Positions 2,983 to 61,871 of a DNA stretch of 64,000 nt are shown one piece after another; position 1 is the stretch's first letter, and every line of letters starts with the position of its first letter. Where the stretch lies: the NCBI GenBank assembly GCA_020634875.1, contig JACKAX010000003.1, positions 1 through 64,000 of the forward strand. The letters run 5' to 3'. Source of the stretch: Anaerolineales bacterium (GTDB lineage: Bacteria; Chloroflexota; Anaerolineae; Anaerolineales; JABWBV01). The notes beneath the pieces were generated by a model. The model ran no database searches. It saw only the letters and a program-made list of their open reading frames with translations, and had not been told where the DNA came from. The position numbers were made by a program, and so were the translations under genes.

Positions 2983-3140
2983 TCATTGTCGCATGAGATA
3001 GCCCAACCAAATCAGTCCGATACTCAGTGCAGTGATGCCGACCGAGCGGATGTACACCTGCCACTCGCCAAACATCGCGCCCATCATAAAAAGTAGCGCA
3101 CCCCCAGGCGAAGAAGTGCCCAGGCGGGATAAAGACCTGT
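2983..3140 (-). pseudogene. C-terminal remnant of a small membrane protein
   Basis: On the minus strand a hydrophobic reading (ALLFMMGAMFGEW, then RSVGITALSIGLIWLGYL) ends at a TGA at 2983-2985. A second hydrophobic stretch (YPAWALLRLG) sits just upstream in another frame, suggesting a frameshift near 3085-3095. There is no plausible start. It looks like the decayed end of a two-helix membrane protein of unknown family. The remainder of 2705-3156 shows no gene I can support. Confidence 0.35.
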
Positions 3141-3156
3141 TAGGGTGTACCCTAAT

Positions 3157-3196
3157 AAAAAAACCGTGTGGATGTTCAAATCCACACGGTTTTTTG
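3157..3196. terminator. Bidirectional rho-independent terminator
   Basis: An 11-bp stem (AACCGTGTGGA and its complement) is flanked by an A-run on the left and a T-run on the right. It lies just after the ABC-2 permease stop, so it would end the minus-strand ABC operon. Confidence 0.8.
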
Positions 3197-3219
3197 TCAT
3201 AAAGGCTTGGTTTGGCAAG

Positions 3220-51001: not shown

Positions 51002-52483
51002 TTACAGCCCCAAACCCAATTTGTCTCCATACGTCAAAATTAACCAACTTAACCCCACCGCCAGCAACACCAGCAATGCCACCACAATAGCCCAGATTCC
51101 AAATACCTTTGCCTTATCCTTAGGCTTTCCGCCCCCCACTTTTTGTGTCTGTCCGTTGACCAACACATGAAACTCATCTCCTTTATAGTGATAGGTACCT
51201 ACCCAAAGAGGCAGAAGGACATATTTATATGTCATCCCTGACCACCCCCCTGCCCCAATTCGTACATTTCGTTTTTTGTGCCCTGGCTCGATCATCCCAT
51301 ACATACGCGGTCGCAATTCCCGTATCACTTTCTCCCGTGCCACCAATGACGCGTCCGACATGGCACGGTCGTAAGAAAGCGTAGGCCATCCGGCTAAATG
51401 CTCAGGCTCAAACTGCAACACCTCCTTCAAGTTGAACGGTTCAATACTGGTCACATCTTCCTTATTCAATACAGAAACCCCCGACACCAACACATCATCA
51501 AAAAATTCCGAATAAATGCCTTCCCGTGGTAACCACATTGGATTGCGGCTATTGTGGCTCACATCCACTTCACAGGACCATCGGGCCTCAATTGCACCAT
51601 CAAAAGTCCAAAAAGGATAGTAAGCAGGCCGCATTTTCAGCCCTTTTGCCCCCTCACCGAGATCATCGGGCGCGAACAACCCACTGTTCAACCAGTCACG
51701 GGCCAACTTGTGTGCCTGCTTCTCTTTTACTTTGAACAATGCGATTACTTGAGGATCTAACAATTCTCGCAACTCTGTCGAATCAACTAGCTGATTATGC
51801 CCGCAGAAGGGACAATGCCCACTTTTCTGCACGGTTTCTTGCACAGTTACGGCCCCACACTTGGTACACTCCACCCGATGTTGGCGCGCCGCCCACAAAT
51901 GTGCCGCCGCCGTATGCATCACCCCTACCATCGGCGTTTCGGCAGAATCAGCAGCCAGCACATCCTGAACCTCCGTGGTATAGCCGCACGATTCGCAATA
52001 CATTTGATTTTGGTCTGGCTCAAAACTCATGCGCCAGCCACATTGCGGACATTCAAATATCTCTGTTTCCGCGTCGATCATCTCTTCTCTTTGTGCGGAA
52101 ACCGTTTCCCTAAACGTCCTCTGATCCCGATCAGGATCAAAATCACCCCGCGCGGATCCCTGGCTGCCCCGCACATAAGCCGCCTCTTCTGGGTTGATGC
52201 CCAATTGCTCGTTCAGTTTCTCCAGGCCGCGTCGTGCAACCTCAAGATTTGGATCGCACGCCAATGCTTTATCCAAATAATCACGTTGTTCGTAAGGATC
52301 ATCTGTTGTTGCCGAAAGCCACAAATAGGGCCGTGCGTCGTTCGGTTGGAGCGTATTTGCCCGCAGAAGTAAGCGCCGCGCCAGCGCTCGGCTGCCCCCT
52401 TTGGCGGCGGTAATGCCCTCGCGAACTAGGTTATCGTATTCGCGCTGGCTGATATGGCTGGGAGGATTACTGGAGGGGAACAT
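51002..52483 (-). CDS. TPR / zinc-ribbon membrane protein
   Basis: A 493-residue protein. Residues 10-95 are TPR-like (AKGGSRALARRLLLRANTL, WLSATTDDPYEQRDYLDKAL). Three zinc-ribbon pieces follow: FECPQCGWRM with MYCESCGY, VECTKCGAV, and GHCPFCGHNQ. The C-terminal third has a beta-rich domain and one membrane segment at the end (IWAIVVALLVLLAVGLSWLI). It is probably a cytoplasmic domain anchored to the membrane at its C-terminus. Such proteins occur widely without a known function. Confidence 0.7.
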   Translation of the reverse strand: MFPSSNPPSHISQREYDNLVREGITAAKGGSRALARRLLLRANTLQPNDARPYLWLSATTDDPYEQRDYLDKALACDPNLEVARRGLEKLNEQLGINPEEAAYVRGSQGSARGDFDPDRDQRTFRETVSAQREEMIDAETEIFECPQCGWRMSFEPDQNQMYCESCGYTTEVQDVLAADSAETPMVGVMHTAAAHLWAARQHRVECTKCGAVTVQETVQKSGHCPFCGHNQLVDSTELRELLDPQVIALFKVKEKQAHKLARDWLNSGLFAPDDLGEGAKGLKMRPAYYPFWTFDGAIEARWSCEVDVSHNSRNPMWLPREGIYSEFFDDVLVSGVSVLNKEDVTSIEPFNLKEVLQFEPEHLAGWPTLSYDRAMSDASLVAREKVIRELRPRMYGMIEPGHKKRNVRIGAGGWSGMTYKYVLLPLWVGTYHYKGDEFHVLVNGQTQKVGGGKPKDKAKVFGIWAIVVALLVLLAVGLSWLILTYGDKLGLGL

Positions 52484-53594: not shown

Positions 53595-53641
53595 AAAAAA
53601 AGGATGGATAGGGAGATGCATCCCCCTATCTATCCTTTTTT
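53595..53641. terminator. Terminator-like palindrome upstream of trxB
   Basis: AAAGGATGGATAGGG and its near-complement CCCTATCTATCCTTT, with A- and T-runs, lie 50 bases upstream of the trxB ATG. No plus-strand gene precedes it. Confidence 0.7.
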
Positions 53642-53796: not shown

Positions 53797-53836
53797 AGTG
53801 ACAGTCTGGTTGGACTGTCACTGGTCTTCTTTTTTT
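53797..53836 (+). terminator. Terminator-like hairpin
   Basis: AGTGACAGTC and GACTGTCACT pair and are followed by GGTCTTCTTTTTTT. No gene is seen between 53642 and here, so the transcript it ends is unknown. Confidence 0.65.
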
Positions 53837-53896: not shown

Positions 53897-53926
53897 TTGA
53901 CCCGCTTCAAAAGCCTGTGGTACACT
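53897..53926 (+). promoter_or_regulatory. Promoter of the small Cys ORF
   Basis: TTGACC (53897-53902), an 18-bp spacer and TACACT (53921-53926). Expected start near 53933, leaving about 42 bases of leader with a CTGGC/GCCAG mini-hairpin and AAAGGAG (53957-53963). Confidence 0.65.
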
Positions 53927-53974
53927 GACCTCACTGGCACAAAAGCCAGAATTTTTAAAGGAGACGCGCCGAAA

Positions 53975-54073
53975 GTGAATTATTGTATGTTCAACAACCC
54001 TAACATGCCTACTAAATCCGCAGTTGGTTTTGGCGGAAATAAACCTTGTCGTAGTGCGTCTGCTTGCCGGTAA
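53975..54073 (+). CDS. Candidate 32-residue Cys-containing peptide
   Basis: A short ORF between a good promoter and a strong terminator. GTG 53975 lies 11 bases after AAAGGAG; an in-frame ATG is at 53987. The peptide begins NYCMFNNPNMPTK, continues with a Gly-rich AVGFGGN segment and ends PCRSASACR, giving Cys at 4, 25 and 31 and Arg at the end. It has no signal peptide and no family I recognise. It could be a leader or regulatory peptide, a modified-peptide precursor, or a fortuitous ORF in a structured RNA. Confidence 0.45.
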   Translation: MNYCMFNNPNMPTKSAVGFGGNKPCRSASACR

Positions 54074-54093
54074 CGGAAACTTTTAGCCCCACC

Positions 54094-54131
54094 AGCCACG
54101 GACGCCCCTACGACGCTCCGTGGCTTTTTTG
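54094..54131 (+). terminator. First of two related terminators
   Basis: AGCCACGGA and TCCGTGGCT with a CGCCCCTACGACG inner part and a six-T run, 20 bases after the small ORF stop. Confidence 0.85.
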
Positions 54132-54181
54132 TTTAAATTTGGGAACGCTTAAGAACGCTTAGCGTTTACAAGAACACCCTC

Positions 54182-54214
54182 AAAGCCACGGTTTCAAAAT
54201 CCCGTGGCTTTTTC
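54182..54214 (+). terminator. Second terminator with the same stem
   Basis: AAAGCCACGG and CCGTGGCTTT, then TTTCG. The stem repeats that of 54094-54131. The sequence between (54132-54181) has the palindrome AACGCTTAGCGTT but no gene. Confidence 0.75.
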
Positions 54215-54351: not shown

Positions 54352-57300
54352 ATGAATACTCCTTCCGACCCCACCTATACCCTCCATCTGTACGACCACC
54401 GCTTTGACGCGGGCCTCGCACAGATGTGGAACGAATCCGATGACCAATGGCCCGGCACCTTCACCGACGGCGTTCCGATGACCGAAGAACGCATCCACGA
54501 TTGGATGGATCGCGTCGAAGCCATTGTCAAGTTCATCATCGTCAAAAATGGCGGTGACGAACCTGAAAAAGTGGTCGGGTACGGCGACCTTTGGAATACC
54601 GCCACTCGCCCCGGCTCGGCCTACGTCGCCCTGCTCAACGTTTCCCCCGCTCATCAAGGCAAATCCCTCGCCCGCCGGATGCTGCACCGAATGGTGGATT
54701 GGGCGGTCGAAAACAAATATGACCGCGTCACCATCGGCACCTGGCCCGCCAACCTGAAAGCGATGCCGCTTTACAAAAAAGTCGGCTTTTTCTGGGAACC
54801 GGGCACCAGTGTTCACATGGAAAACTACCTCCCTGCTGTGCGTCTACACCCGCTCGCACAACCGTACTTTAACAAACATGATTGGTACAAAACCTACCGC
54901 CGCGACCTCAGCCAGGTCGAAGATGACATGCGCCACCCTTGCACGGGCGACACGAAAGTGTACATCCTCCGTTGGGAGGAAGATGGCGACCAACTCGAAA
55001 CCGTCTTTGACCGGAACGCCCAGGCCCTGACGGGGTTCGCCACCAGCGGGTTTGACGGCGCTCCGGCCTGGGCCGCGTTTGCTCGCGCCGGGGAAAGCGA
55101 ACCCGCGCAGGGTATCGCCTACCCGATGGAGTGGGAAGTGATCAACCGGAGCAATGTCCCGCTGACCGTCAAAATCTCGGTAAAGGCCGATGAAGGGATC
55201 AGCATCCGTCATCATACTTCGTACACCCTCCAACCGGGCGAGCGCAAAATGACCACCGCCAACTTCCGCGTGGCCCCCGATGCCCCCAAGTATCACGGCG
55301 AGCATCACGACCTGCCCAAACCCAAAATTACCACGCACCTGGAGATCAACGGGCAAAAACTGGAATTCGGCACGGGGCTGCGTTACCGGCCCGCCGTCGA
55401 ATTCAGTCTGCATCCCAGTATCGTGAGCCTGCTTCCCGGCGTGGCGCAAACCGTGCACCTGCAACTTCGCAGTCGTGCCAAGCGCGCCCTCACCGGAACG
55501 GTCAAACTCAACCTTCCCGATGGCTTGACCGCTGAATGGCAAACGACATCTTTCGAGACTCCCTCCGAAGGTTACGCGGGTATTCCGCTCACGCTCACGG
55601 CGCAGAAAGGCGGCTTTTACCCCCTGGAACTCTGTGCGGAATTTGACGACGCAGGCACCACCGTCACCACCCAGCCCAAACGCTTACCTGTGGTTGCCGT
55701 CAATCCTGGCGGATACGCGGCAGGGTTGGGCGATGAAGAACTCATCCTCGAAAATGACTACTTCCGCATTACCGCTAAAGCCAAAAGTGGCGAGGCAAAA
55801 ATCTGGAACAAAGACCTGCAACGTGAAGAAGCCCTCTTCCGTGAAGAAATCGGCCCCGCGTTTGTGCCGCTGGATTTGTACGAACAGGAATATAACCTGG
55901 ATGTGCATCAAACCGATGGCACCGCGAAAGCGATCCTGACCGTGCGCTCAACCCGTTTCCCTGGCCTCGTCGTCGGGCGGGAGATTGCCGTCAACGCTTC
56001 CCCGCTTATTCGTATCCGGGGCTGGGTCAGCAACAACACCGATGAAACTTCGCGAAGGATTGCAACAGCGTCTGCTCGTTTACACTGAAGCGGATCGGAA
56101 CAACCTGATCACCGTGCCCCTCAAAGACCGGCTTGTTCGAGAGCACCTGTCGCAATTTGCCATCGCCGAGGGTGACTTACCGAAACAACTCGACCGGTAT
56201 GCGGAAGAATGGCTCTCCTACGAAAGCCTCGGTAATGTCTTTGGCCTGGTTTGGCCGTTGAAGGGCTTGAAAGAATTTGACGCCGAATTTGGCCGTCACT
56301 TCTTCTACTTTGACCTGCCTTCGCTGGCCCCTTCCGAGACCCGCCAAATTGCCCCGCTCTATCTTTACGCTGGTCCGGGCGACTGGCAAACCATCCAACG
56401 AACCTGGCGGCGTCTGCATGGCACAACCCACGAACGTCGGTCTCAGAAACCTTCTGACGAGACCCAATCGCACCTTGACATCTCTTTCAATAAACCGTTG
56501 ATCACCCTCACCGATCATCTAACTGCTGAGCTGCAAATCAACACCACCCGCGAGTACAAACTCGACGGGCAACTCACCATCCAACCCCCGACCGGATGGC
56601 ACTCAGAACCCGAACAGGTTACTGTCTCCGGCTTGGTTCACGAGACCCCCGCAGAATCCCCTGTTCTCTTCGATGGTACAGCTCCCCGCGTGGGCGCGTA
56701 TGCAGGCGAACTCCACCTGAATACCCAACTGTTTGACCGGGTTCAGCCCTTCACGATTTTCCGTCTGGGCGACAACGCCAAAACCGTCGAAACCGCCCAA
56801 ACCGCGCGGGAAGGTCACGTTCTCTGGACGCTGTCCAACGGTCACAGCGAGTGGACGATTGCCCCTGACTATCACGGCGGCATCATCTCCTGGCAGGAGG
56901 TTGGAAAGGATACTAATCATTTCCTCACCGCCTTCCCGCAAGATGGCGAACTGAGTTGGATGAAGCCCTTCTTCGGTGGACTTCGCCCCATTCTTCACGA
57001 ATCTGGCGAAAGTGGCTGGCCCGGAAAACTGCACAAGGAAACGTTCACCGTATCCCCGATCACTATCCCGGATGCGCGAGCACTTCCCTGGCAAGGTCTC
57101 CGCCTATCCACCGAACTGACTCGTGAAGCCTTCCGGGGAATGAACCTCGAACTCGATTACCTGACTCTGCCCGGTAGCAATGTGCTGAAATCCACCATTC
57201 GGTTGGTGAACCAGACTTCGATCTACCGCAAGGCCGATCCCGGTTTCCTAGCCTTTGTCCAGGTAGACGGCACCCACAAAAACGGCACCGCCCACACGCC

Positions 57301-57577
57301 GGACTTCCAGCGCAAACGCACGCCGCACATGACCTGGGCAGTGACCAGTCCCTGGGCCGCCATCGAAAACCCAGAGACGGGACGCACAATGGTTGCCGTC
57401 AACCCGACCGGTTGGCAACAACTCATGGCGATGGACTGGGGCATGCACGGCGTTCACTTCAACATCTTTGAATCGGTGAGTGTCCCCCCGCAAGGTGTCT
57501 ACGAACTCACGACTTACCTTGCCCTGGCCGGCTCGGTGGATGAAGCAAAACGATATGGCGAATTGGTAAAAAGGTAA
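54352..57577 (+). pseudogene. GNAT N-acetyltransferase fused to NEW3/CARDB-like region, frameshifted
   Basis: A long gene broken by one frame change near 56051-56058. The first frame (54352-56088) has an N-terminal GNAT domain (residues 1-160, VALLNVSPAHQGKSLARRML), then beta-sandwich segments resembling NEW3/CARDB domains (LTVKISVKADEGISIRHH, VAQTVHLQLRSRAKR). The second frame continues to 57577 (LQQRLLVYTEADRNN onward), ending in an alpha-mannosidase/galactosidase-like beta-rich region. Removing one base at the CGCGAAGG site rejoins them to about 1075 residues. Both frames keep coding-like composition, so it is a recent mutation or a sequencing error. Function unknown. Confidence 0.75.
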
Positions 57578-57747: not shown

Positions 57748-59493
57748 ATGAAAATCCCCCTACGAGAATATTGGTCCCTCCTCGGAACCTACCTCCGCCC
57801 GCAATGGAAAAGGGCGACGGTTATGCTCGTCCTTCTGCTCACCGCTATCGGTTTGCAGTTGTACGTCCCACAGATCGTCCGCTCGTTCATTGATGGCGCG
57901 ACGGCAGGTACCCCGGTCAGTGAACTGACCCGTTTGGCCGTTCTCTTCCTTGCGCTGGCATTGGTCAAAGAAATTACCAGTGCCGCAACCACCTATGTCG
58001 GGCAGGATGTCCGCTGGCGGGCCACCAACGCGCTCCGGCGCGATCTGGCTCTCCACAGCCTCCGCCTCGACATGCGCTTTCACAACCTAAAAACCCCCGG
58101 TGAGATGATCGAGCGGATCGACTCCGATGTGGATGAACTTTCCAACTTCTTCTCGCACTTCGTCGTGGAGATTATGGGCAACGCCATCTTGCTTGTCGGC
58201 GTGCTGGTTTTGCTCTTCCGCGAAGACCTCCGCATCGGGTTGGCATTCCTGGGCTTTTGCTTCGTCACCGTGCTCATTCTCATCCGCGTCATCCCCTTTG
58301 CCGTCGGACAATGGGAAAAAGCCCGCGAAGCGAACTCCGAACTCTTCGGGTTTCTCGAAGAACGCCTCGCCGGAACAGAAGACATCGCCGCCCTGGGCGC
58401 TGGCCCGTACATCCTCCGTCGCTTTTCTCAGGCCCTCACGGTGTTCTTGAACGACACCCGCAAAGCCTGGGTCAAAGGCAGCGTGATCTGGCTCGCCTCG
58501 CTCATCACCTTCACGTTTGGGAACATCACCGCCCTCGCGATGGGCGCGTGGCTCTTCCAAAAAGGTGTGATTACCATCGGCGCGGTGTACATCATCTTCC
58601 ACTACAACGAGATGCTCCGCCGCCCGCTAGAGACCATCACCCGCCAGATGCAAGACCTGCAACGCGCGGGGGGCAGCATCGCCCGGATCAAAGAACTCTT
58701 CGGGATGGAATCTTCCACCCAGGATGGCGCGGGCGAACCACTGCCTGACGGGGCACTGGCCCTGGCATTTGACGGTGTCACCTTCAGCTACAACGGCGAT
58801 GATGTCACCCTCGAAAACGTGGACTTCCGCCTCCAACCGGGGCAGGTGCTTGGCTTGCTCGGACGAACGGGGAGCGGCAAAACGACCATCGCCCGCCTGC
58901 TCTTTCGGTTGTACGACCCCACGCAGGGCAGCATCCGCCTGAACGAGGTGGACCTCCGCGAACCGAAACTGGACGATGTCCGCACCCGCGTCGGGATGGT
59001 CACGCAAGATGTCCAGTTGTTCCGGGCCACCGTGCGTGACAATCTCACCTTCTTCGACCGGAGCATCCCCGATGCCCGCGTAGAGGAAGTGCTCAAAGAC
59101 CTCGGCCTCTGGCACTGGGTTGAATCCCTCCCGGACGGCCTGAACACCGAACTTGAATCGGACGGCGGCGGCCTGTCCGCGGGCGAAGCACAATTGTTGG
59201 CTTTCACCCGCGTCTTCCTCCGCAATCCTGGCCTGGTGATCCTGGACGAAGCCTCCTCCCGGCTTGATCCAGCCACCGAACAGCTCATTGAACGAGCCGT
59301 AGATAAACTTTTTGAAAACCGTACCGCCATCATCATCGCACACCGTCTTGCAACGGTTCAGCGGGCGGACTACATCATGATCCTTGAAAATGGGCACATC
59401 GTCGAACACGGCCCCCGCGAATACCTCGCCACCAACGCCACTTCCCGCTTCTTCCAACTGATGCAAACGGGAATGCAGGAGGTTCTAGCGTAG
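57748..59493 (+). CDS. ABC exporter (fused permease-ATPase), first of a pair
   Basis: A 581-residue exporter half. Six membrane segments occupy residues 20-310; the ATPase has Walker A GRTGSGKT near 373, Q-loop VTQDVQLF, signature LSAGEAQL (Ala for Gly), Walker B GLVILDEASSRLD, and H-switch IIAHRLATVQ. The pair is likely a heterodimer with the gene at 59911. Substrate unknown. Its stop codon opens another repeat. Confidence 0.92.
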   Translation: MKIPLREYWSLLGTYLRPQWKRATVMLVLLLTAIGLQLYVPQIVRSFIDGATAGTPVSELTRLAVLFLALALVKEITSAATTYVGQDVRWRATNALRRDLALHSLRLDMRFHNLKTPGEMIERIDSDVDELSNFFSHFVVEIMGNAILLVGVLVLLFREDLRIGLAFLGFCFVTVLILIRVIPFAVGQWEKAREANSELFGFLEERLAGTEDIAALGAGPYILRRFSQALTVFLNDTRKAWVKGSVIWLASLITFTFGNITALAMGAWLFQKGVITIGAVYIIFHYNEMLRRPLETITRQMQDLQRAGGSIARIKELFGMESSTQDGAGEPLPDGALALAFDGVTFSYNGDDVTLENVDFRLQPGQVLGLLGRTGSGKTTIARLLFRLYDPTQGSIRLNEVDLREPKLDDVRTRVGMVTQDVQLFRATVRDNLTFFDRSIPDARVEEVLKDLGLWHWVESLPDGLNTELESDGGGLSAGEAQLLAFTRVFLRNPGLVILDEASSRLDPATEQLIERAVDKLFENRTAIIIAHRLATVQRADYIMILENGHIVEHGPREYLATNATSRFFQLMQTGMQEVLA

Positions 59494-59910: not shown

Positions 59911-61871
59911 ATGCAAAACACAAAAGCACAAGATACCATCTCCACCTACGCCCTCACGTTCCGGCTGGTGATGATGGAAGCCCGCGTCTTCCTCCTCAAC
60001 GCGGCGGCCTGGTTTGTAATGTTTATCGTCCCCCTCGGGGTCGGGTTGGTGATCCGTTCCTATTTCGATACGCTGACGGGGGACGCACCCGCGACTATCG
60101 GCTTGTGGGGGTTGCTCGCCCTGATCGGCGGGCTGACCCTGGGCCGGGTGGTTGCCATCCTTGGGGGGATTTGGGCCAACGCGACGATTTTGAACAAATC
60201 TTCTGGGCGACTGCGCCGGAATCTCCTCGCGCGGGTGCTTGCCCGTCCGGGGGCCGACGCCCTGCCGGGTTCGAGCGGGGAAGCGATTTCCCGGTTTGGT
60301 GGCGATGTCCGCGAGTTGGAGTGGGCGGTTGAATGGTGGGGGGATTTGCCCGGCATCGTCGGCGTGACGATTATGAGTCTGGTCGTGATGGGAAGTATCA
60401 ACCTGACCATCACCGCCGCGATCTTTGCCCCGATGGTGATCATCCTGCTCGTGGTGATCTCTTTGCGGACGAAGATTTTGGCTTACCGCGCCGCCGCTCG
60501 GAAAGCGCACGCCCGCGTCATCGGCTTTATCGCCGAGACGTTTGGTGCGGCGCAAGCGATCAAAGTCGCCACCGCCGAGGAAAACGTGACCCGCCGTTTC
60601 GATGAACTGAACGAAGCCCGGCGCGTCGCCTCGCTCAAAGATACGATGTTGAGCGAGATGATGACGACGATCTTCCGCAGTACGATCAACGTGGGCATCG
60701 GGCTGACCCTGCTCCTGGCTGGACAGGCGATGGAAAAGGGCACGTTCACGATTGGCGATTTCGCGCTGTTCATCATGTACATGTGGCCGCTGACCGACTC
60801 GATGTTTGGGTACGGGCACATGATCGCCCGCCACAACCAGGCAAAAGTCTCGCTCGACCGGCTGACGTACTTGCTGATGGGCGAGTCCCCGCGGGAGTTG
60901 ATCCAACCCCATCCCGTTCACATGGACGGAACCCTGCCGGATGTGCCTGCGTTCGTCAAAACCGAAGCCGACCGTCTCGACACCCTCGAAGTCCGCGACC
61001 TGTCGTATGTGTACCCGGAAAGCGGGCGCGGCGTGCGGGAGGTCAGTTTCGATGTGCAACACGGCACAATCACCGTTATCACGGGGCGGATCGGGTCGGG
61101 GAAAACAACATTGCTCCGTGCCCTGCTGGGGCTGCTCCCTGCGGAAGGTGAACGGTTTTGGAACGGCGCGCGGGTGGCGGAACCCCATCGGTTTTTCATC
61201 CCCCCGCGGGCGGCGTACACCCCGCAGGTGCCGCGCCTGTTCAGCGAAACGCTCCGGGACAACATCTTGATGGGGCAGCCGAACACGAGCGAGGAAGTGC
61301 AACACGCGCTTCGCACGGCAGTCTTCGAGCAAGACCTGGGCACGATGGAACAGGGTCTGGATACGCTCATCGGCCCGCGCGGGGTGCGGCTTTCGGGCGG
61401 GCAGGTGCAACGGACGCCGCCGCCCGCATGTTCGTCACCGGCGCGGAATTGCTGGTGTTCGATGATCTGTCGTCAGCGCTGGATGTGGAAACGGAGCGGA
61501 CGTTGTGGGCGCGGATTTTTGGGCAGGAAAGTGCTGGGAAAGCCAACGGAACGCAGGGGAATTCAAGGGAACTTGAGGAAGCTTATGGGAACTCAGGGGA
61601 TTTTATGGGAACTCAGCGGAATTTGAGGGAACTCAAAGGAAGCAATGGAAATTCCCACAAGTTCCAACCAATTCCCACAAACTCCCATCATGCCCCTACC
61701 TGCCTCGTCGTTTCCCACCGCAAATCTGTCCTGCAACGGGCCGATCATATCGTTGTGTTGAAAGATGGGCACGTCGAAGCGCAGGGGAAGCTGGATGAAC
61801 TGCTGGTAACGTGTGAGGAGATGCGGAAGTTGTGGGAAGGGGATTTTGGGGAAGAGAAGTCCACAAAATAA
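59911..61871 (+). pseudogene. ABC exporter (fused permease-ATPase), second of a pair, frameshifted
   Basis: Six membrane segments and Walker A (GRIGSGKTTLLRALLG near residue 395) read in the first frame from 59911 to about 61412. The signature LSGGQVQR then needs one extra base (ACGCCGCC where AC(G)GCCGCC is expected) to continue into [27 protein letters not shown] in the second frame, which runs to 61871. Between this Walker B and the H-switch ([20 protein letters not shown]), about 50 residues of low-complexity sequence rich in Asn, Gly and Ser are inserted, encoded by GGGAACTCAGGGG-type repeats. Whether the protein works is doubtful. Confidence 0.8.

What the first reader, a model, noticed from the sequence alone, without database searches (positions are those of the whole stretch)
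53897..54214. Self-contained transcription unit with a 32-codon Cys peptide and twin terminators
A promoter (TTGACC-18-TACACT), a leader with mini-hairpin, AAAGGAG, a GTG-started ORF of 32 codons with Cys at 4, 25 and 31 and a Gly-rich centre, and two terminators with the same GCCACGG stem occur in 320 bp that has no other gene. It is neither a leader attached to a downstream gene (terminators separate it) nor a known RNA I recognise. It may be a new peptide, a peptide toxin or precursor, or a structured small RNA.
Basis: partly seen in the sequence, partly recalled or inferred. Interest (0 to 1): 0.7.

Follow-up and report, generated by a model that had tools for sequence, protein, structure and literature searches.

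The report
Ribosome-sensing switch for drug-resistance genes
This stretch looks like an RNA switch that lets an environmental bacterium make drug-pump and acetyltransferase proteins only when its ribosomes stall, and copies of the same switch stand before similar genes in many related bacteria.

Summary
Promoter, AAAGGAG, 32-codon GTG ORF and two GCCACGG terminators are there, and the unit recurs in a related genome before the same gene. A covariance model of its 3' half matched 257 of 400 genomes of that order; a second model matched 3 of 276 newly drawn genomes of the phylum. What is conserved is RNA: a box at the ORF's end (CCTTGTCGnAnTGCGYCTG) can pair with the ribosome-binding-site leader or, instead, with the 5' arm and loop of terminator 1. 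Cognate pairings beat all 2000 swaps in both cases. The peptide is barely constrained. Of 72 next genes, 27 match ABC_tran, 18 ABC_membrane and 10 Acetyltransf_1; seven are ABC-F. Best reading: a ribosome-mediated transcription attenuator. A ribosome slowed early in the ORF frees the box, which disarms the terminator and turns on the genes behind. It works like Bacillus vmlR and bmrCD leaders. No Rfam match; no paper found. The drug trigger is inferred, not shown.

The parts
53897..53926 (+). promoter TTGACC-18-TACACT
   Evidence: in the family a TTGACA-like (>=5/6) promoter with 16-19 nt spacing was found upstream in 84 of 90 instances with an ORF (no chance control was run)
53934..53949 (+). 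mini-hairpin in the leader (not general to the family)
   Evidence: loop and part of the stem seen in G001 too
53957..53970 (+). region 1: ribosome-binding site AAAGGAG plus GACGCGC, able to pair with region 2 (anti-antiterminator)
53975..54073 (+). leader-peptide ORF, GTG start, 32 codons, TAA
   Evidence: frame kept in G001 with a one-codon indel; in the family an ORF reaches the box in 73 of 76 instances with a strong SD, 37.9 expected
54044..54064 (+). region 2: conserved RNA box CCTTGTCGTAGTGCGTCTGCT at the end of the ORF
   Evidence: position counts over 91 instances
54095..54130 (+). terminator 1 (region 3 = 5' arm and loop GCCACGGACGCCCCTACGACG; region 4 = TCCGTGGC then T6)
54185..54213 (+). 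terminator 2, same GCCACGG stem; its 5' arm can pair with the freed 3' arm of terminator 1
54352..57577 (+). first gene behind the switch: GNAT-domain fusion protein, here split over two overlapping frames (54352-56088 and 55985-57577)
   Evidence: one 1065-aa ORF in G001
57748..59493 (+). ABC exporter half-transporter, probably co-regulated
   Evidence: no NCBIfam cut-off reached; same order in G001
59911..61626 (+). second ABC exporter half-transporter, possibly in the same transcript
   Evidence: no NCBIfam cut-off reached

Best explanation
A ribosome-mediated transcription attenuator for translation-stress and drug-resistance genes. A constitutive promoter makes a leader RNA. With no ribosome, the leader/SD (1) pairs with the box and terminator 1 (3:4) forms: OFF. 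When a ribosome reads the ORF quickly to its stop, it covers the box and the terminator forms: OFF. When a ribosome is held at the start or early codons (by an antibiotic or other translation stress), it opens 1:2 while the box is free. The box then captures the 5' arm and loop of terminator 1 as that arm is made (2:3), terminator 1 fails, and RNA polymerase goes on into the GNAT and ABC-exporter genes: ON. Terminator 2 is a second barrier. Its 5' arm matches the 3' arm that terminator 1 leaves free, so it may be disarmed by relay. Supported by sequence comparison: ORF, box, competing pairings, terminators, kind of downstream gene. Inferred: that the ORF is translated, that termination is regulated, that antibiotics are the signal.
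For: Competing pairings in the window and its first three relatives (duplex -17.1 to -21.4 kcal for 1:2, -22.8 to -25.0 for 2:3). Cognate 2:terminator-loop pairing -13.8 against -11.1 (sd 0.40) for swapped partners, one instance per distinct box, n = 37; cognate leader:2 -14.8 against -12.4 (sd 0.36), n = 41; 0 of 2000 swaps reach either. Box position 16 covaries with the leader base (A-T 8, A-C 8, G-T 1, G-C 30, Fisher p 3e-4) and with the terminator arm base (5, 1, 6, 41, p 9e-4). Window fold: P(terminator 1) 0.84 free, 0.003 with a ribosome on the start, 0.89 with one at the stop. RNA made only as far as the loop: box paired to region 3 by 0.56 on average when stalled early, 0.39 free, 0.05 at the stop; stalled exceeds stop by >0.1 in 76 of 78. 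ORF 73 of 76 against 37.9 expected. Downstream genes: of 72, ABC_tran 27, ABC_membrane 18, Acetyltransf_1 10; of 20 further loci, ABC_membrane 9, ABC_tran 4, Acetyltransf_1 5. In the 30 upstream neighbours neither ABC_tran nor any GNAT family is among the 25 families shown of 48, so at most one member each. Genome G107, its 4.1 Mb nearly all in one contig, has four copies, before two ABC half-exporters, a GNAT and an ABC-F.
Against: At full equilibrium an early ribosome lowers terminator 1 (by >0.05) in only 20 of 78 instances; it stays favoured in the rest, so the model needs co-transcriptional kinetics. With RNA cut at the loop, the stalled state raises 2:3 over free by >0.1 in only 33 of 78; in the window itself it is 0.75 free, 0.76 stalled and still 0.38 at the stop. 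At the tested position 8 of 47 leaders with GNCGC have an A:C mismatch, and 35 instances with an SD show no GNCGC; for the terminator arm, 26 of 91 lacked the pattern and 12 have C or T there. A terminator-2-like hairpin was found in 62 of 91 only. Instances are related by descent, so swap and Fisher tests are not independent trials. No expression data. Of 20 downstream proteins scanned singly, 11 had no Pfam family.
Confidence: 0.8

Rival explanations
1. A functional small peptide (toxin, RiPP precursor or metal-binding peptide) in its own transcription unit; the RNA structures are incidental.
For: Window and G001 peptides are 81% identical with changes mostly at third positions (3/5/14 by codon position; 8 synonymous codons, counting the stop, to 6 non-synonymous).
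Against: Over 11 independent pairs of other copies (equal ORF length, same frame, 65-98% identical DNA), changes fall evenly on codon positions (33/40/43) and are 25 synonymous to 64 non-synonymous codons. The C-terminal frame differs between copies while the RNA box is fixed. No candidate in the protein search and no Pfam match. The next genes are largely of a few kinds.
Confidence: 0.07
2. A trans-acting small RNA, about 200 nt ending at terminator 1.
For: Own promoter, terminator, conserved box. Released attenuator products act in trans in one known case (peTrpL, PMC7298713: title and start of abstract seen in search listings).
Against: In 72 of 76 instances with a downstream gene the first such gene is on the same strand and many are ABC or GNAT. 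The conserved box is explained by cis pairing. No Rfam family in the window or in 12 loci tested.
Confidence: 0.07
3. A leader attenuator of the same architecture, sensing amino-acid starvation or general growth rate rather than drugs.
For: The architecture is the same as for amino-acid attenuators (own knowledge); nothing in the sequence names the signal.
Against: No single amino acid dominates the ORF bodies: Ala 10.5%, Gly 10.4%, Val 9.9%, Trp 0.2%, His 0.7%. The named downstream genes are ABC proteins, ABC-F and GNATs.
Confidence: 0.15
4. Ordinary tandem terminators of an upstream transcript plus a chance ORF.
For: Intrinsic terminators with similar stems are common (own knowledge).
Against: ORF enrichment and conservation of a box outside the terminators; matches largely confined to one order in the draws made.
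Confidence: 0.01

Closest known systems
vmlR leader of Bacillus subtilis (PMC9226507, abstract and section list read)
   Same: uORF, anti-antiterminator, antiterminator and intrinsic terminator before an ABC-F resistance gene; stalling on the uORF gives read-through. Some copies here also precede ABC-F genes.
   Different: Sequences were not compared. Bacillota. Here one box recurs before many operons in Chloroflexota, often with a second terminator (62 of 91), and the ABC-F copies read out look leaderless.
bmrB leader of bmrCD, Bacillus subtilis (PMC4191407, abstract and section 15 read)
   Same: Leader peptide (GTG start) and attenuation of a multidrug ABC transporter gene pair; needs translation of the leader.
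   Different: There the terminator lies within the bmrB ORF; here both terminators follow it. Different phylum; no demonstrated drug response here.
toiL uORF of Escherichia coli (PMC12121999, abstract and section list read)
   Same: A generic uORF that senses several classes of ribosome drugs by where ribosomes stall.
   Different: Acts on translation and Rho-dependent termination, not on an intrinsic terminator.
ABC-leaders of Naville and Gautheret 2010 (PMC2965389, passages read)
   Same: Predicted attenuators before ABC-transporter genes.
   Different: Word search of that main text finds no 'Chloroflex'; no leader ORF shared with this family was seen in the passages read.

Membership tests
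ribosome-mediated transcription attenuator (vmlR/bmrB type) | short ORF with ribosome-binding site in the leader | tested here: met
   73 of 76 instances with a strong SD against 37.9 expected; 15 of 91 lack a strong SD. Translation itself not testable.
ribosome-mediated transcription attenuator (vmlR/bmrB type) | intrinsic terminator between ORF and gene | tested here: met
   segment folding energy median -21.0 kcal over 79; two terminators in the window
ribosome-mediated transcription attenuator (vmlR/bmrB type) | antiterminator that excludes the terminator | tested here: met
   cognate pairing beats all 2000 swaps; window fold. Computation only.
ribosome-mediated transcription attenuator (vmlR/bmrB type) | anti-antiterminator disrupted by the ribosome | tested here: met
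   leader:box pairing; no SD leader in the leaderless copies
ribosome-mediated transcription attenuator (vmlR/bmrB type) | switching of the terminator by ribosome position | tested here: inconclusive
   clear for window and G001 at equilibrium, 20 of 78 overall; 76 of 78 stalled above stop in truncated RNA, but only 33 of 78 above free
ribosome-mediated transcription attenuator (vmlR/bmrB type) | induction by ribosome-targeting drugs, dependent on ORF translation | not testable with these tools
   needs reporter or RNA-seq
amino-acid attenuator (trp/his type) | excess of one cognate amino acid's codons in the ORF | tested here: not met
   pooled body composition over 90 ORFs; runs in single ORFs were only looked over by eye
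functional peptide / toxin | conserved amino-acid sequence and frame | tested here: not met
   (the window/G001 pair alone would pass)
known Rfam RNA family | match above gathering score | tested here: not met
   window and 12 loci

The most novel reading that the evidence does not exclude
An order-wide resistance regulon without a transcription factor: one RNA switch, copied before ABC exporters, ABC-F and GNAT genes in Anaerolineales, is the lineage's general translation-stress sensor. It has a relay of two same-stem terminators in which the 3' arm freed from terminator 1 disarms terminator 2 (cognate T1 3' arm: T2 5' arm -14.9 against -12.9 swapped, 0 of 2000 reach, n = 60; simple duplication of the terminator would give the same signal).
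Probability: 0.35. Interest if true: 0.75.

Novelty: new variant of a known kind. Interest (0 to 1): 0.62.

Why it matters
Leader attenuators for drug resistance are known mainly as single cases in Bacillota and a few other groups (own knowledge and the papers above). This would be a family held by most sampled genomes of one Chloroflexota order (257 of 400), with one sequence signature usable as a search model. It would predict a set of drug-responsive genes, some without a Pfam family, in bacteria that are mostly uncultured. The fixed box with a changing reading frame is also a natural hint that the act of translation, not the peptide, is the signal.

Tried and rejected
Peptide as the conserved entity: the protein search with the 58-aa frame, residues 19-58, found no candidate; tblastn in plasmids gave nothing. 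The peptide in 301 genomes of the order gave only G001 clearly; the other 6 matches, at E 0.007-0.043, show no such unit when read out. The only other genome held of G001's family, G002, has no match to the two-peptide profile. Same place in L001 (upstream of TrxR): a different gene, no unit; the G001 copy is on another contig. Rfam at E <= 1: two matches far below gathering score. A genome scan with the GNAT protein found nothing. Own script errors: the first ORF/motif script demanded a strict T-run and missed 11 of 91 instances that are plainly of the family when read out, and misplaced L146. One search, and so the tally, rest on the 79 kept, of which 3 had no gene and 4 a first gene on the other strand, leaving 72. 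In one search four ORF starts (L062, L066, L093, L110) were mis-picked and L101 had none. The ORF test (78 of 78 against 34.5) chose the SD by the ORF and is biased; one search repeats it with SDs chosen blind.

Full report
1. The observation. The described parts are all in the sequence. The ORF VNYCMFNNPNMPTKSAVGFGGNKPCRSASACR is 53975-54073. The two terminators lie at 54095-54130 and 54185-54213. Rfam at its gathering scores finds only a tRNA elsewhere in the window.

2. Finding relatives. No whole genome is held for the window. The neighbour protein 51002-52483 led, through an 11-sequence alignment, to 26 loci in named genomes. The closest is L001, Anaerolineales bacterium MAG_39, 74% identical. 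In that genome (G001) the peptide has a match at E 1.1e-10 on another contig, and the whole unit stands there before the same GNAT gene (63% identical): promoter, GTG ORF with a one-codon indel, both terminators. Using the G001 DNA in 61 relatives gave weak hits; two on one segment, in G024 and G023, proved real. Of the other weak hits outside G001 I read out two, L045 and L048, and saw no such unit. Read out, G024 and G023 had the same architecture but different peptides.

3. The family. Model R1 (86 positions, box to end of terminator 1) matched 257 of 400 genomes of the order at E <= 0.01. That search scored 11 candidates per genome with strict filters, and its E-values are rough. I took 91 instances: the window, the 30 loci that search gave, and 60 more that I chose down its list, skipping some second copies and contig ends. 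All 91 match R1, as they must, since R1 picked them; 12 that my own script had missed or misplaced I checked by eye. Neither leader nor most of the ORF is in R1, and it encodes no 1:2 or 2:3 pairing, so the tests below are not circular in that respect. Model R2 from these 91 matched 26 of 301 genomes drawn over the phylum at E <= 1e-4. By handle numbers, 25 of the 301 had been met in earlier calls, nearly all through the order draws, and 23 of these match; 3 of the 276 new handles match. Some of the 276 may belong to the order; kinship was not told. Two unrelated genomes gave none; one Ardenticatenales genome gave three weak matches, which I did not read out.

4. What is conserved. Over 91 instances 14 of the 19 box positions show one base in 86-91; positions 5, 9, 11, 16 and 19 vary. 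The ORF ends mostly 23-36 nt after the box starts: +30 in 52 of 90, +27 in 11, +23 in 10 (the extremes 22 and 43 are mis-picked ORFs). It is read in two main frames, giving P[CS]R[SIN]AP..R or LS.C[AV]C. Length median is 31 residues, start ATG in 86 and GTG in 4 of 90. With SDs chosen blind (>=6 of 7 in 76 of 91), an ORF runs from the SD to the box in 73 of 76, against 37.9 when the interior is shuffled. The peptide body is not conserved: 11 independent pairs, changes 33/40/43 by codon position, 25 synonymous to 64 non-synonymous codons. The window/G001 pair is an exception (3/5/14; 8 to 6). So the open frame matters, and the peptide mostly does not.

5. Competing pairings. In the window the leader AAAGGAGACGCGCC pairs with the box, and the box also pairs with GGACGCCCCTACGACG of terminator 1. 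Cognate pairings beat swapped ones for both helices. Using unique instances: -17.9 against -15.4 (n = 67) for 1:2, and -17.7 against -15.4 (n = 73) for 2:3, 0 of 200 swaps each. With one instance per distinct box: -14.8 against -12.4 (n = 41) and -13.8 against -11.1 (n = 37), 0 of 2000 each. Loop bases of terminator 1 have no partner in its stem, so their agreement with the box is the most telling part. The base opposite box position 16 agrees in both helices, with exceptions (see the Against line).

6. Switching. For the window and G001 an equilibrium fold switches fully (terminator 0.84/0.98 free, 0.003/0.009 with a ribosome on the start, 0.89/0.98 at the stop). Most other copies do not switch at equilibrium (20 of 78 lowered by >0.05). 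With RNA made only as far as the loop, the box pairs with region 3 at 0.56 on average when a ribosome is held early and 0.05 when it is at the stop codon (76 of 78 in that direction by >0.1), but also at 0.39 with no ribosome; for the window 0.76, 0.38 and 0.75. So the ribosome at the stop as OFF state is better supported by these folds than 1:2 as OFF state.

7. What it controls. Of 79 instances, 76 have a gene of >= 90 codons downstream; in 72 the first is on the same strand, median start 153 nt after the box. Pfam on these 72 (first 300 residues each): ABC_tran 27, ABC_membrane 18, ABC_tran_Xtn 7, Acetyltransf_1 10, MFS_1 1. ABC_tran and ABC_membrane sum to 45 if no protein has both; an ABC exporter model in NCBIfam matches 45. 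L107 and L116 pass NCBIfam's ABC-F ribosomal-protection cut-off, and L099, L109, L110, L121 and L126 carry two ABC_tran stretches with ABC_tran_Xtn. These seven ORFs start a few nt after a TATAAT-like box with no SD, that is they look leaderless. Twenty further loci that I chose, most from genomes with several copies: ABC_membrane 9, ABC_tran 4, Acetyltransf_1 5. In genome G107 four copies on one contig precede two ABC half-exporters, a GNAT and an ABC-F. Control: the 30 nearest upstream genes are mixed; neither ABC_tran nor a GNAT family is among the 25 of 48 families shown. In the window the order is GNAT fusion, ABC exporter, ABC exporter; G001 has the same first two before its contig ends.

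8. Mechanism. See Best explanation. Supported by comparison: parts, pairings, gene kinds. Inferred: translation of the ORF, regulated termination, drug signal. The drug signal rests on gene kinds (ABC-F ribosomal protection above all), the absence of a dominant amino acid, and analogy with vmlR and bmrCD.

9. Literature. Searches with leader peptide/attenuation/ABC transporter/Chloroflexi, ribosome-mediated attenuation/bmrCD, uORF attenuator terms, Anaerolineales + leader peptide, Chloroflexi RNA-motif terms (79, 12 of 15 listed), Chloroflexi + transcription attenuation + antibiotic, leader peptide/ABC-F/antiterminator/uORF and attenuator + Anaerolineae + terminator listed no paper that, by title and start of abstract, describes this element. 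Searches listed 15 of 123 and 12 of 19. Only open-licence PMC papers were searched.

10. Verdict. A conserved attenuator-like family, new variant of a known kind.

Noticed in passing
window 54352-57577: The GNAT fusion gene is split over two overlapping frames (54352-56088, 55985-57577), while G001 has one ORF of 1065 aa (L033 10315-13512). Sequencing error or decayed gene; left as it is.
   Followed up: partly
window 53797-53822 and 53607-53630, - strand; L001 about 1679-1712: Two hairpins with T-runs stand in the leader of the divergent TrxR gene; a similar hairpin followed by TTTTTTATG lies before TrxR in L001. Possibly a second, different attenuator.
   Followed up: partly
L027 1668-1705: A short repeat (GGAATTCGTAGGAATTC and the like) between the two terminators has 12 further matches in G001 at E <= 0.1.
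   Followed up: no
L099, L107, L109, L110, L116, L121, L126, L170, L181: Copies before ABC-F genes (L181 by eye only) have a TATAAT-like box a few nt before the ATG and no SD: apparently leaderless uORFs, so region 1 is missing and the switch must work differently. L120 and L143 look leaderless too.
   Followed up: partly
L064, L074, L084, L098, L123, L128 (first gene after the element): Proteins of 137-162 aa without a Pfam match at E <= 1e-3 follow the element; behind L064, and in the kindred loci L077 and L090, a further ORF resembles by eye the GNAT of L168. Candidates for unknown resistance functions.
   Followed up: partly
window 3137-3213: Weak R2 matches on both strands (14.5-14.9 bits), probably an ordinary terminator.
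   Followed up: no
L163-L166 (genomes G661, G410, G480): Three phylum genomes with handles outside the earlier draws carry recognisable copies: before a GNAT (L163) and an ABC protein (L164); the other two genes look like ABC proteins by eye only.
   Followed up: partly
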